From NCBI GenBank assembly GCA_949775045.1, contig OX459108.1:7629961-7693960 (forward strand): 64,000 bases of DNA, given 5' to 3'. Position numbers and translations under genes: made by a program. Positions 6,229-64,000 of the stretch are shown here, in pieces. Each line of letters begins with the position of its first letter. Positions within the stretch are counted from its first letter, which is position 1. Origin of the DNA: Metridium senile. Its lineage: Eukaryota > Cnidaria > Anthozoa > Actiniaria > Metridiidae. The notes under the pieces are model-generated. The model had not been told where the DNA came from and ran no database searches. It saw only the letters and a list, made by a program, of their open reading frames with translations.

Positions 6229-9200
6229 TCAGATATCGGTTTCTCCTCGTAGCGACGGATCAAGAGACTGGTACTCGGCAGAATGAACATCAGGTTGCAG
6301 TTCTTGATAAATACCGCTGGCTTGTTGAAGTAAATGAGGTTTCTTAGGCAGCTTTGTGTCAGGGCTAAGCGATCCATAAACACTCGAGCTAGATGGAGTG
6401 AGAGGCTCGTACAACGATAAACTAGTTGTTGGGATCCCTGTGCTGTTTGTGAGTGGGTTCCCTGTGGTTTTACGAGATAGTTCTTCGTTGATGTTCTCAT
6501 AAATTGAAGGGCCGGTTGAAGGCATCCCTTTGGTATGCGGTGATGGGTTCCCTGTGGTGTTGCTATGGGAATGGTGTTCACCACCATCATTCACGTGGTT
6601 CGCTTTGTTCTGATGACTCTTCGATGAATGTTCAATTTCTTGAAGATTAATTGCATTCTGCGAAATAGAAACACACACACAGACGTGAGACATTTACCAA
6701 ATATGGAAAACCTTGGTGAAGATCCCGTATATATAGTTGCTTAGCAGATATTTTGTCAAGTATGTGCGAATGTATGACGTCTATATATCAATCTTTATTT
6801 TTAGTACCAATATTTTACAATAATAATAATAATAATATGATAGTACACACTGCTTTTGTGGTACATGCCAGCTGTAGTAGCTTTGGACTAGTCGAGACAG
6901 CTGGCACTTCCTCCGATTTATTTTTGTCACTTCCTCCGATTTACCCCCATGAAAACTGGCGCCAAACATTAGCGCGTCGCGTGCTATAAGATGTTATTCA
7001 AAGATCTCTTTGGTGATTTCGCGCGCTCACTTCCGGCAAGTATAAGTCAATCAGAAGCATTTTTGTCGCATCGCAAACAGTTCCAAAATGGCGTCACTCG
7101 TCGCTCGAGAGGGTTTTTTTTGTGTTCACCCTCTTTAAATACGTCCTTAATATAACTTAACATTAAAAAATTATATGAAATTGGAGAACAAAAACTCTGA
7201 TGCTAAATCAGCATTAAAAAATATGCCTAAGAGAACCCGAAATCGTCCTGTCTCGAGGCGCCATTTTGAAACTGTTCGTTTGATAAACAATCCTTTGCGC
7301 GCTTCGAAGCTAGATCACCTGGATATCACAACAGTTTTAAAACCGGTTTGAGCCTGAGGGAAATACTGATTTAATAAACCTTTTCCGAGTTTGCATGATT
7401 ATTCACAAAAGAAAAAAGAAAAAAAAGATATTGCAATATATAAATTCAAAGCCATATTATTGATATAAACAGTGTACCTTACCATATTCCCAAGGTTCCC
7501 GTCATTGTCAGACTGCCTGTAAATAAATGATAGAGCATTGTCATACTGAACAATTAGGTATTATATATAATTGCCTTTGACATGTTTGAGACCGGCGGCT
7601 AAGAAAAGGCCGATAACTATCAAACATCGAACCTAATCAAAATGAGCAAAACCATTTTGTTTGAATTCATTTGCATTAGATTCGGCACATAATAATAATA
7701 ATAATAATAATAATAATAATAATAATAATAATAATAATAATAATAATAATAATAATAATAATAATAATAATAATAATAATAATAATAATAATAATAATAT
7801 AATATACATAATTAAAAAAGTTTAAAAAAATGTCTTTAATCTAAAGTTAAAATGACATGTGCGATACGACGCTTGAACTAGGTCTAAGGAAACTTAATCG
7901 GTAACTCTTGACAGTCATTAAACCTATATTACGTGCCGTAATAGACTTTCGTCAGTTAAGTAGTGATATGTTACCTTTGATTTTGGTGCTCTTGTCTTCC
8001 TAAAAAGCAAACAAAATTCGTTTAAGTTTATTTTGAACTTTCGACGTTCATCACTTAAACTCTGTTTATTTCAGTGGCAAAGGATCATTCACTTATTCAT
8101 TCATTCGTTCGTTTGTTTATTTCATTCATCGATTCTCATTTCATTCTGATCCATTTTTCGTCCATCTATTAATCATTGACTTCAAGATTGAAATCACATC
8201 AGCTAAGTTATCATTCAATTGTACCTTTTTTGCGCTTCCATACGAAGTAAACGATGAGGATGACGTTGAGCAACAGAGATAAGCCAAACAATGCTATAAA
8301 CACGGCAGCTAAGATGGATACTGGATCTAAAAACAATGTGTGCCTGATAAGCTAGATTTCCCGTCATCAAGCAAATCAGGTGAAGGTGATAGTTACTTAA
8401 ATAGTCCCCTTCTGGCGGCTCGTATATAGATTTGAACAATCAAGCCTAGGGGCACGTTGTACGAAGCCTGCATAGCGCTAGCCACCGGAAAAATATCCCT
8501 TTCCAAATTCTATACACTGGATAATTCTTACCCATGCAGTGTATAACTTTATATCCAGGCTTCGTACAACTGGCCCCATTTTCGATCAACTAACCTTTAG
8601 AGGTGTTCAGACACGTTGCTGTTGCCATTGCCATTGTTGCTGTCGTTGCCGTTTTCGCTGCCAGAGTAGTTGTAGTTATCCTGGCATCGACACCTGAAAT
8701 GTTGCAGTGGACGTTCAATATTTGACTCTCACTAGTCTGACTTATTAATTCAACTTCTCAGGCTTAGTTCAAACGTCGCATCTCACATGTGCCGAATTCA
8801 ACACACTTTTTCACAGTTCTCGTCGATCAGCTCATCGCACAGAATGCCCGGACACTTTCGGGTCTTTTCTGCTGTTTGAACGCAAAATTCAATCAGGCGA
8901 AGCGTATTTTTAAATAAGAGAACAAAATTGCTCAACTTCGTGTAATAAAATGCATTTTAAAATTTTCAAAAGGTGATCTCAAAAAGGTAGGGGATGCAAA
9001 TGAAATATGAAATGTTGACTAAACGTTTGCACTATCAAATGTTTAGTAATGTTAATAACTAAGACTATATCTTTTTTGAGCTCAAATTTGTCAAAAATCG
9101 GCTTTTTTGTGGGGAGCCAATATTCCAACTGTAATTTGTGGGTCTTAATTACACGTTAAACTTACGGGGTGCAAAATTAACATCGTAATCCAAGCAATAT

Positions 9201-63100: not shown

Positions 63101-64000
63101 TTAAATTAGCTACATTATATATAAAGTTAATCATTGGTTAGTGTTATTTGAGCTTTGAACAATCAACCCCAGATCGCTTACCTGTAGAGGTGTTCAAGGA
63201 CGTTGCCATTGTCGTTGCCGTTGTCGTTGGCAATGTCGCTGTCGTTCCCTTTGTCATTATCTCTGTCGTTGTCGCTGTCGCTGTCGTAATTGTCTGAGTA
63301 GATGTAGTTATCCTGGCATCGACACCTGAAATGTTCAATATTTGACACTAGACTTATTTAGTAAATGAACAAACGATGTCTTGATGGGCAATTTGACCTA
63401 TCTTGTGCAGTCAGGTTAGTATTTAACCTACCATGTACAGTAAGGTTAGTATTTGACCTACCATGTACAGTAAGGTTAGTATTTGACCTACCATGTACAG
63501 TAAGGTTAGTATTTGATCTACCATGTACAGTAAGGTTAGTATTTGACCTACCATGTACAGTAAGGTTAGTATTTGACCTACCATGTACAGTAAGGTTAGT
63601 ATTTGACCTACCATGTACAGTAAGGTTAGTATTTGACCTACCATGTACAGTAAGATTTGTATACTGAGTCGCTTTCTCGGCATTTTCAGGCTGTCCCACC
63701 TGTACCGTGTATAGCCTTGCATCACTAGTGATATTGAGGTTTCTAATTGCAAATAATATATTCACCACGGTGCCACTCTGATAAACATTACATTTCAAAT
63801 CCGAATCTCGACTTGTAAATGTAGGATAGACATGACGTGAGCCAGATTTGCCAATTTTGATCATATGTTCATCTGAACCTTCAGACTGTTTTTGGTACAC
63901 TTTAAAATAAGTCCATGCATTATTTGGTGAGTTAAAGTTGGAAAGATCGGCCAGCCAAGTGATTGTAACACTTTGTCCTTCTATTCCCACAGCTGACGGG
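60172..64000 (-). CDS. Receptor gene E: Ig-like ectodomain with ITIM/ITAM tail, membrane exon missing
   Basis: Minus-strand exons in view: an Ig-like exon entering from the right edge, 63182-63325 Thr-rich stalk (48 codons), 61383-61416 micro-exon, 60172-60756 tail (194 residues). The Ig segment reads GQSVTITW (B strand), WTYFKVYQK (C strand), DARLYTVQV (F strand) and TQYTNLTVHG (G strand), with Thr and Thr/Val where the canonical cysteines would be. It runs into 30-bp repeats (63421-63660). The tail has SIYEYL, KLYEYM (YxxM), SPYGSL and an ITAM-spaced YQEL-8-YQSL; the proximal YEPL pair is lost (SLYNAS). Between 61616 and 63150, where the membrane and first micro-exon should lie, are unrelated repeats and a Crypton fragment. 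Without a cryptic membrane exon this copy cannot make a normal receptor. The start is outside the window. Confidence 0.7.
62000..62941 (-). pseudogene. Crypton-derived N-terminal gene fragment
   Basis: Exon 1 (62758-62941) starts MNDQNDQEFPTFEVN and reads RRFADVNNENLNTLVEESQA...KWAAVSDLQ, then splices (GTTAGT) in phase 1 to 62000-62106, WCSEKNIEEKVGEMSCENL..RRFYAKARSKN, ending at a TAA. This is the helical N-terminal region of Crypton/KIAA1958/QRICH1-like (DUF3504) proteins. The tyrosine recombinase is absent and the frame stops at about 97 residues, where relatives continue. A dispersed repeat (62150-62580) lies in the intron. Confidence 0.65.
62150..62580. repeat. 430-bp dispersed repeat, copy 2 (inverted)
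   Basis: Inverse of 5478-5915, starting ACCCTGGGTACCAGGGGTTA and ending CTAGTTTCTAGGG. Confidence 0.75.
63421..63660 (-). repeat. 8 x 30-bp minisatellite encoding NLTVHGRSNT
   Basis: Eight 30-bp units follow the Ig-like exon of gene E. On the coding strand each gives a 10-residue repeat with one N-glycosylation sequon (NLT). Each also contains CATG|GTAGGT, a plausible 5' splice site in phase 1, the phase used by the receptor exons. One unit reads GTAGAT. The repeat is open in several frames because 30 is divisible by 3. Confidence 0.9.

What the first reader, a model, noticed from the sequence alone, without database searches (positions are those of the whole stretch)
6229..64000. Tandem family of lectin/Ig receptors with combined ITIM-like and ITAM-like tails
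At least five minus-strand copies share one tail exon design. In A and B the tail contains ITIM-like sites plus two pairs that meet the ITAM spacing rule YxxL/I-x6-8-YxxL/I: YEPL-7-YGSL and YQEL-8-YQSL. Established knowledge: vertebrate NK and Fc receptors and the Hydractinia Alr allorecognition proteins use such motifs, usually with Ig ectodomains. A CTLD-headed receptor carrying both motif classes in its own tail, in a multi-copy cluster with pseudogenes and exon gain or loss, looks like a polymorphic recognition locus. The self/non-self role is inference.
Basis: partly seen in the sequence, partly recalled or inferred. Interest (0 to 1): 0.92.

Follow-up and report, generated by a model that had tools for sequence, protein, structure and literature searches.

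The report
Sea anemone head-swapping ITAM receptor cluster
A gene cluster in the sea anemone Metridium senile carries exons for three kinds of head (a lectin, a beta-propeller and a likely antibody-like domain) beside copies of one tail exon whose paired tyrosines fit the immune-receptor ITAM rule, so it is predicted to make cell-surface receptors that would sense foreign cells or microbes and likely signal through a Syk-like protein of the same animal.

Summary
The tail design is real and the story is larger than reported. The window is Metridium senile chromosome 14 (scaffold lengths match exactly). Twelve tail exons lie in a ~225 kb minus-strand array, five in the window. Splice phases give one architecture: signal peptide, head, stalk, TM, two short exons, tail. 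Three CTLD genes are intact, one (A, 467 aa) wholly in the window; B's tail is cut off by an insertion. At least 32 further homologous tail exons lie elsewhere, 29 in a chr2 region with Ig/FN3 heads; one chr2 gene read through has the same phases. In 20 aligned tails three tyrosines are invariant and 19 keep an ITAM-spaced pair. The genome encodes Syk-like tandem SH2 domains. Chr7 sister genes carry the same signal peptide, CTLD and stalk but an unrelated YxxV/L-rich tail, as in vertebrate paired receptors. Signalling and allorecognition are inferred: no transcript, haplotype or binding data; 9 of 12 chr14 units are damaged or incomplete; dN/dS shows no positive selection on the CTLD. New variant of a known kind.

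The parts
11454..11526 (-). Gene A exon 1, predicted signal peptide (phase out 1)
   Evidence: SP exon found in 9 chr14 copies, 7 heading CTLD units and 2 heading propeller units
10114..10548 (-). Gene A exon 2, C-type lectin domain (phase 1-1)
   Evidence: PF00059 E=1.4e-11; splice phases; alignment of 7 copies
9772..9945 (-). Gene A exon 3, stalk 1 (1-1)
   Evidence: 7 copies with AG acceptor and GT donor
8595..8693 (-). Gene A exon 4, Thr-rich stalk 2 (1-1)
8225..8326 (-). Gene A exon 5, transmembrane segment (1-1)
   Evidence: DPVSILAAVF...VWKRKK; 10 copies
7575..7632 (-). Gene A exon 6, juxtamembrane (1-2), GC donor
   Evidence: exon of the same phases, with GT donor, in chr2 gene L029
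7483..7516 (-). Gene A exon 7, 34-nt exon (2-0)
   Evidence: chr2 counterpart in L029
6229..6657 (-). Gene A exon 8, tail with 5 YxxL/I motifs and two ITAM-spaced pairs
13431..19513 (-). Gene B: SP 19513-19438, CTLD 18463-18023, ST1 16501-16325, TM 15860-15759, 34-nt 14109-14076, tail 13859-13431; no ST2 match; juxtamembrane exon split by an insertion
14667..15124 (-). Gene B juxtamembrane exon interrupted by a tRNA-like (SINE-like) insertion; stops follow and the tail is out of frame
21425..35554 (-). Gene C: SP 35554-35479, CTLD 34545-34105, ST1 29301-29125, ST2 25617-25531 (acceptor AG lost), TM 25250-25149, JM 23848-23791 (donor lost), 34-nt 23732-23699, tail 21872-21425 (frame breaks before Y4); LINE-like insertion between ST1 and ST2
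50966..51371 (-). Gene D propeller exon 1 (1-2), YWTD / LDLR class B repeats
   Evidence: PF00058 E=1.7e-20; splice sites and open frame
50239..50633 (-). Gene D propeller exon 2 (2-1)
   Evidence: PF00058 E=2.7e-21
43798..46525 (-). Gene D TM 46525-46424, JM 46036-45979, 34-nt 45456-45423, tail 44167-43798 (frameshifted early)
63642..64000 (-). Gene E V-set-like head exon (continues 28 bases past the window's end)
   Evidence: 77% relative inside the chr2 region; weak Ig-type fold match
60172..63325 (-). Gene E ST2 63325-63182, JM 61532-61475 (GT donor), 34-nt 61416-61383, long open tail 60756-60172; no TM or SP exon found
1920..1995 (-). Signal-peptide exon of gene m1, whose other seven exons lie left of the window (open 469-aa model)

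Best explanation
It is a tandem family of sea-anemone genes, predicted from exon phases to encode type I receptors, in which alternative head exons (CTLD, YWTD beta-propeller or a likely V-set-type Ig domain) stand in front of copies of one stalk-TM-tail cassette whose tyrosine pairs fit the ITAM rule and would likely recruit the Syk-like tandem-SH2 protein of the same genome when a head binds its ligand. Shown: the exons and their matching phases, the shared tail, homologous tails on chr2 (with the same phases in the one gene read through), the same signal peptide, CTLD and stalk exons beside a different tail on chr7, and the tandem SH2 domains. Inferred: that the exons are spliced as modelled, that Src-type kinases phosphorylate the tyrosines, that ITAM-spaced pairs activate while ITIM-like sites and the chr7 tail inhibit, and that the ligands are foreign cells or microbes. 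I commit to an activating/inhibitory paired-receptor system.
For: Three complete, phase-consistent, stop-free 8-exon models: A, m1, m57. The same TM(1-1)/JM(1-2)/34-nt(2-0)/tail(0) phases in one independent chr2 gene (L029); the TM of chr2 stretch L030 is also similar (35%, E=5e-4). 20-tail alignment: Y3, Y4, Y5 invariant; all 8 Y and Y+3 columns of Y2-Y5 share the majority residue between the two families against 19 of 46 other core columns (Fisher P=0.002, related sequences, core chosen by me; fully invariant columns 4 of 8 against 9 of 46). 19 of 20 tails keep a strict ITAM-spaced pair. Two adjacent SH2 domains on chr11 match best the N- and C-SH2 of SYK (E=6.8e-32 and 1.3e-25). Three head types beside one cassette; propeller D-versus-leftmost dN/dS 0.40. 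Chr7 genes: same SP (92-100%), CTLD (72-78%) and ST1 (68-70%), while the chr14 TM, JM and tail queries find nothing in the 20 kb read. CTLD variation lies mostly after the WIGL motif, 51 of 88 against 11 of 60 columns (P=1.5e-6).
Against: No transcript evidence. The juxtamembrane exon needs a GC donor in A, m1 and m57. 9 of 12 chr14 units are damaged or incomplete, among them all three propeller units and both V-set units. Pooled pN/pS is 0.62 for CTLD and 0.97 among five chr14 tails, so neither positive selection on the heads nor strong constraint on the chr14 tail as a whole. The predicted signal peptide has a charged ER in the middle of its hydrophobic stretch. YxxL motifs also fit AP-2 endocytic signals (recalled). 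One of 20 tails (L037) has no strict ITAM pair. The CTLD sugar site is degenerate: EPN, QPN, QPD or DPN, and [VL]KD where WND is usual. The kinase domain behind the SH2 pair was not read.
Confidence: 0.7

Rival explanations
1. The YxxL sites are endocytic sorting signals (AP-2 YxxPhi): the genes make scavenger or uptake receptors whose lectin, propeller and Ig-like heads capture particles for internalisation, without kinase signalling.
For: YGSL, YQEL and YQSL all fit YxxPhi (recalled rule). LDLR-type propellers and lectins are common in uptake receptors (recalled). The variety of heads suits scavenging.
Against: Two YxxL pairs at ITAM spacing are kept in 13 of 20 tails and at least one in 19 of 20; endocytic signals need no fixed pairing (recalled). 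Syk-like tandem SH2 domains exist.
Confidence: 0.17
2. Same signalling, different ligand: a pathogen- or symbiont-sensing (not self/non-self) receptor family whose heads bind microbial surfaces, the copy turnover reflecting an arms race.
For: CTLD heads with EPN/QPN/QPD/DPN variation; at least 151 Lectin_C matches genome-wide, many in clusters; no evidence of allelic polymorphism is in hand.
Against: The chr2 partner family has V-set-like, I-set and FN3 heads where read, closer in domain type to the IgSF histocompatibility receptors of Hydractinia, which fits cell-cell recognition better.
Confidence: 0.4
3. A largely dead relic cluster: most units are pseudogenes and the few open ones are recent copies not yet broken.
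For: 9 of 12 chr14 units damaged or incomplete; pN/pS near 1 among five chr14 tails.
Against: Three complete open 8-exon genes; 27 of 32 tail matches outside chr14 contain no stop and all 13 of those read out are open; motif columns are conserved between chr14 and chr2; propeller dN/dS 0.40.
Confidence: 0.12

Closest known systems
Hydractinia Alr family / allorecognition complex (Hydrozoa)
   Same: [quoted passage not shown] ITAM/ITIM motifs reported on candidate allorecognition genes (PMC12065747, passages).
   Different: Alr proteins are IgSF; here chr14 heads are CTLD, YWTD propeller or V-set-like. Polymorphic ectodomains and control of fusion are reported for Alr1/Alr2, not shown here. No direct sequence comparison with Alr was made.
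Vertebrate NK receptors: C-type lectin NKC and Ig-type leukocyte receptor complex
   Same: Two main clusters, one encoding C-type lectin molecules (PMC1193534, start of abstract in search listing), the other Ig-type (recalled); tyrosine-motif tails and paired activating/inhibitory logic (recalled).
   Different: NKC lectins are type II (recalled); these models are type I with an N-terminal signal peptide. Here the lectin and Ig loci share a homologous tail.
Botryllus fester co-receptors (FcoR)
   Same: Type I receptors in a cluster with long tails carrying ITIM, hemITAM and YxxI/L/V motifs (PMC12065747, passages).
   Different: FcoR have V-type Ig, sushi and two C2-type Ig domains and hemITAMs; no CTLD or propeller head is described in the passages seen.
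LDL receptor family YWTD propeller
   Same: Pfam Ldl_recept_b repeats over two exons, about 267 aa.
   Different: The propeller exons stand next to the ITAM-type cassette, and in two units next to the same signal peptide; no LDLR class A or EGF match in the two propeller frames scanned.

Membership tests
ITAM-bearing receptor | YxxL/I-x6-8-YxxL/I in the cytoplasmic tail | tested here: met
   19 of 20 aligned tails, two pairs in 13 of 20
ITAM-bearing receptor | phosphorylation and binding to Syk/ZAP-70 tandem SH2 | not testable with these tools
   only the presence of SYK-like N- and C-SH2 domains on chr11 was tested; the kinase domain was not read
ITIM-bearing receptor | (S/I/V/L)xYxx(I/V/L) | tested here: met
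   7 of 7 open chr14 tails have 2-3; 4 of 13 chr2 tails have one; not more than shuffles often give for E (0.099)
C-type lectin domain | Pfam Lectin_C above cut-off with canonical cysteines | tested here: met
   37-46 bits against cut-off 22.6 in the three window copies; cysteines invariant in 7 copies
C-type lectin domain (Ca-dependent sugar binding) | EPN/QPD plus WND | tested here: not met
   EPN, QPN, QPD or DPN present, but the WND position reads LKD or VKD in 7 of 7
Hydractinia Alr family | V-set/I-set Ig ectodomain | tested here: not met
   CTLD and propeller units have other heads; only E and E' are V-set-like; the chr2 family has V-set-like, I-set and FN3 where read
Hydractinia Alr family | high allelic polymorphism controlling fusion | not testable with these tools
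   one haplotype held; an alternate haplotype GCA_949775035.1 is deposited
Vertebrate NKC lectin receptors | type II orientation, TM N-terminal to CTLD (recalled) | tested here: not met
   SP-CTLD-stalk-TM-tail order in A, m1, m57
Botryllus FcoR | V-Ig + sushi + two C2-Ig domains | tested here: not met
   no sushi match in the 20 frames scanned; C2-set matches only below cut-off, in chr2 I-set exons
Paired activating/inhibitory receptors | near-identical heads on opposing tails | tested here: inconclusive
   same SP/CTLD/ST1 beside ITAM-spaced (chr14) and YxxV/L-rich non-ITAM (chr7) tails; opposing function untested, and only 2 strict ITIM-type sites in the chr7 tail

The most novel reading that the evidence does not exclude
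Metridium senile runs a combinatorial recognition system across three chromosomes: one ITAM cassette carried by four head types (lectin, beta-propeller and V-set on chr14; V-set/I-set/FN3 on chr2) and one lectin head carried by two opposing tails (chr14 activating, chr7 inhibitory), and these loci are the histocompatibility genes that tell clonemates from strangers in anemone aggression.
Probability: 0.25. Interest if true: 0.95.

Novelty: new variant of a known kind. Interest (0 to 1): 0.82.

Why it matters
Sea anemones fight non-clonemates (Metridium with catch tentacles; recalled), yet the receptors are, as far as I know, unidentified. This gives places to test: chr14:7.52-7.75, chr2:1.46-3.20 and chr7:5.63-5.69 Mb, with a defined candidate signalling tail. 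If confirmed it would show an NK-like split into lectin and Ig receptor loci in a cnidarian, built by changing heads in front of one ITAM tail, and would make anemone self/non-self recognition directly testable by haplotype-behaviour association.

Tried and rejected
(2) D as a headless remnant: its head is the propeller. (3) Strong positive selection on CTLD: pooled pN/pS 0.62, loop segments 0.76 and 0.95 (one short segment has no synonymous change at all); stalk ST1 gives 1.55 but from very few synonymous changes. The V-set exon of E/E' is more diverged (62 of 384 sites, 16%) than its flanks (3-8%), but both dS and dN are raised (ratio 0.86). (4) Podocoryna as the source: 327 Mb, 17 chromosomes (PMC13119343, passages).

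Led nowhere: the search for homologous proteins with model A, no match at E<=0.001 (how many animal proteins that collection holds is unknown to me). AlphaFold of the CTLD failed (pLDDT 37); the V-set model is weak (pLDDT 59.5), its best Foldseek match a sodium-channel beta4 Ig domain at E=0.01, among other Ig domains and unrelated folds. A paper search for the genome size found nothing. In the listings no title or abstract start reported CTLD or propeller receptors with ITAM tails in cnidarians; I saw listings only for most of these papers (PMC9505182, PMC11999971 and PMC5465252 among those not opened), the library lacks most subscription papers, and Huene et al. 2022 is not held. One search used some wrong exon edges and was replaced; one search failed by a script error and was redone; only part of the m75 propeller was modelled. 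SHP-type phosphatases and the Syk kinase domain were not checked.
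Full report
Where this is. The window is G000:C14:7629961-7693960 of a 389 Mb genome. The lengths of C1 (66,427,095) and C14 (16,127,631) equal exactly the longest and N90 scaffolds printed for Metridium senile jaMetSeni4.1 (PMC11362738, sections 4 and 5 read). So this is chromosome 14 (OX459108.1) of the plumose sea anemone, a hexacoral. The held genome has 169 contigs against 250 scaffolds in the paper, so it is not the complete file.

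The cluster. A tail-exon search of the genome gives 18 matches on chr14 that belong to 12 tail exons between 7.5245 and 7.7459 Mb, all on the minus strand; five are in the window. Mapping eight exon templates over the region shows a repeated order: signal peptide, head, stalk 1, stalk 2, transmembrane, juxtamembrane, 34-nt exon, tail. Found: 9 signal-peptide exons, 7 CTLD exons, 7 stalk-1 exons, 10 TM exons, 12 tails. In the CTLD genes the splice phases are 1, 1-1, 1-1, 1-1, 1-1, 1-2, 2-0, 0. The head exons are 1-1 (CTLD, V-set) or 1-2 plus 2-1 (propeller), so heads can be exchanged without breaking the frame.

Intact and broken units. Complete open models: A (467 aa, wholly in the window), m1 (469 aa; only its signal peptide, 1995-1920, is in the window) and m57 (469 aa), all. 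The other 9 of 12 are damaged or incomplete: B, juxtamembrane exon split by a tRNA-like insertion; C, stalk-2 acceptor and juxtamembrane donor lost, tail frame broken before Y4; D, tail frameshifted and no signal peptide found; E and E', no signal peptide or TM found, and the E' tail has stops; m12 and m68, CTLD acceptor region one base short, and m12 also lacks AG before its tail; m75, AT for AG at the TM acceptor and a tail that ends early; the leftmost unit, split juxtamembrane exon and a stop before Y4. The juxtamembrane exon uses a GC donor in A, m1 and m57, which is a weak point. It is offset by the chr2 gene in L029, which has exons of the same phases between TM and tail, a counterpart of the 34-nt exon ending in ATG|GT, and a GT donor.

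Three heads. (i) CTLD: PF00059, 37-46 bits in the three window copies. (ii) YWTD beta-propeller: D in the window and two units left of it carry two exons with LDLR class B repeats (Pfam PF00058 run on D; the other two by 79-87% similarity), about 267 aa. D and the leftmost copy are stop-free when the two exons are joined, with dN/dS 0.40 between them; m75 was only partly modelled. (iii) V-set-like: E and E'. Pfam gives no Ig match, only a below-cut-off Sarcoglycan match. The AlphaFold model is weak (pLDDT 59.5) and its best Foldseek match is an Ig domain at E=0.01, among other Ig domains and unrelated folds. Its closest relative, 77% identical, lies at chr2:2.355 Mb, inside the chr2 region, which suggests head traffic between loci.

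The chr2 family. A chr2 tail query finds 41 matches: 9 on chr14 and 32 elsewhere, 29 of them at chr2:1.456-3.199 Mb (plus strand up to 1.98, minus from 2.04 Mb) and one each at chr2:34.8, chr1:11.1 and chr12:4.5 Mb; 5 of the 32 contain stops (the tool calls its counts lower bounds). I read heads in two 10-kb stretches only. L029 has a V-set-like exon just upstream (chr2:1647667), one frame without a Pfam match, then Ig, Ig, Ig, FN3, Ig, FN3 frames, a TM and the tail; that these are one gene is inferred. V-set-like heads give 33 matches genome-wide, 21 of them in the chr2 region.

Tyrosine motifs. I aligned 20 open tails: 7 of the 12 on chr14 (A, B, m1, m57, m68, m12, E; C, D, E', m75 and the leftmost were dropped as frameshifted or truncated) and 13 of the 32 elsewhere (those found). 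Y3, Y4 and Y5 are 20/20, Y2 is 16/20, and the L after Y5 is 20/20. A proline motif between Y3 and Y4 (SPxT..P..P) is also invariant, so the tyrosines are not the only conserved part. Of 54 core columns, all 8 motif columns (Y and Y+3 of Y2-Y5) have the same majority residue in both families against 19 of 46 others (Fisher P=0.002); fully invariant are 4 of 8 against 9 of 46. The sequences are related and the core was chosen by me, so the P value is indicative. A strict ITAM-spaced pair is present in 19 of 20 and two pairs in 13 of 20; L037 has none. Five short chr14 tails have two pairs and 2-3 strict ITIMs; the two long ones (m12, E) have one pair, two strict ITIMs and an inserted extra tyrosine block. 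Four of 13 chr2 tails carry one strict ITIM. Y1 is not aligned between the families by MAFFT.

A reader for the motif. An SH2 scan gives 46 matches. Two adjacent ones on chr11 (15270110 and 15270846) match best the first SH2 (chain 1a81 residues 7-84, E=6.8e-32) and the second SH2 (residues 160-236, E=1.3e-25) of SYK, then ZAP-70, ahead of SHP-2. The kinase domain was not read. [quoted passage not shown]

Paired heads on chr7. The nearest CTLD relatives outside the cluster are at chr7:5.63-5.69 Mb, three full copies at 75-78%. In the 20 kb read (L043, L044) there are three signal peptides (92-100% identical), two close CTLDs (75 and 72%) and two stalk-1 exons (68 and 70%), but the chr14 TM, juxtamembrane and tail queries find nothing. 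The L043 gene has its own hydrophobic TM-like frame and a tail-like frame with 14 tyrosines, 9 of type YxxL/I/V, two strict ITIM-type sites and no ITAM spacing. That is the layout of paired receptors, with function and splicing untested.

Selection. Pooled pN/pS: CTLD 0.62 (21 pairs of 7), stalk 1 1.55, chr14 tail 0.97 (10 pairs of 5), V-set E/E' 0.88. CTLD variation lies mostly after the WIGL motif (51 of 88 columns against 11 of 60, P=1.5e-6), where pN/pS is 0.69. This is diversification of the ligand-loop half without proof of positive selection. The lectin sugar site varies (EPN, QPN, QPD, DPN) and WND is absent, so calcium-dependent sugar binding is doubtful.

Mechanism and rivals. Best reading: ligand binding clusters type I receptors; Src-type kinases phosphorylate the paired YxxL sites; the tandem SH2 protein docks on them; ITIM-like sites and the chr7 tail would oppose. 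Every step after the gene models is inferred. Rivals are endocytic YxxPhi signals, microbe sensing rather than self/non-self (same signalling, other ligand), and a relic cluster. The first two are compatible with the same anatomy and need experiments.

Known systems. It would work like NK-type and FcoR-type receptors (PMC12065747, passages; PMC1193534, abstract start in listing) and is clustered like the Hydractinia complex (PMC11067881, passages), but it lacks a defining feature of each: type II topology, sushi domains, or an IgSF head in most units. The novelty is the modularity: one tail beside several unrelated heads, and one head beside two tails. No listed title or abstract start described this; most subscription papers are missing from that library and most listed papers were not opened.

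Noticed in passing
window 25991-28856 (+): LINE-type reverse transcriptase-like frames (596 and 385 aa, overlapping) between the ST1 and ST2 exons of gene C (label by reading, not by Pfam).
   Followed up: no
window 41437-42786 (-): DDE_Tnp_4 transposase ORF (449 aa, Pfam) between genes C and D.
   Followed up: no
window 39260-40747 (+): YqaJ-type nuclease ORF with a below-cut-off SWIM match (495 aa).
   Followed up: no
window 15100-14700 (-): tRNA-like SINE-type insertion inside the juxtamembrane exon of gene B (label by reading); ARAGORN lists no tRNA gene.
   Followed up: partly
window 63391-63662: 30-bp tandem repeat at the 3' end of E's V-set exon; units repeat a TACTAAC box and an ATG|GTAGGT donor-like site, so the splice donor itself is repeated.
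   Followed up: partly
L043, L044 (chr7:5.643-5.663 Mb): Sister genes with the same signal peptide, CTLD and stalk but an unrelated YxxV/L-rich tail.
   Followed up: partly
L045 5642-5830 (chr2:1.6656 Mb): A CTLD exon fragment (56%) lies inside the chr2 receptor region.
   Followed up: partly
L030 3098-5860: About 2.7 kb of tandem repeat between the TM and tail exons of a chr2 receptor gene, open in two frames.
   Followed up: no
C7:9.36-9.58 Mb: Another CTLD cluster on chr7, minus strand, copies 39-54% identical to the chr14 head.
   Followed up: no
right of window, window coordinates 124795-126000 (-): Open frame resembling a Polinton-type packaging ATPase (label recalled).
   Followed up: no
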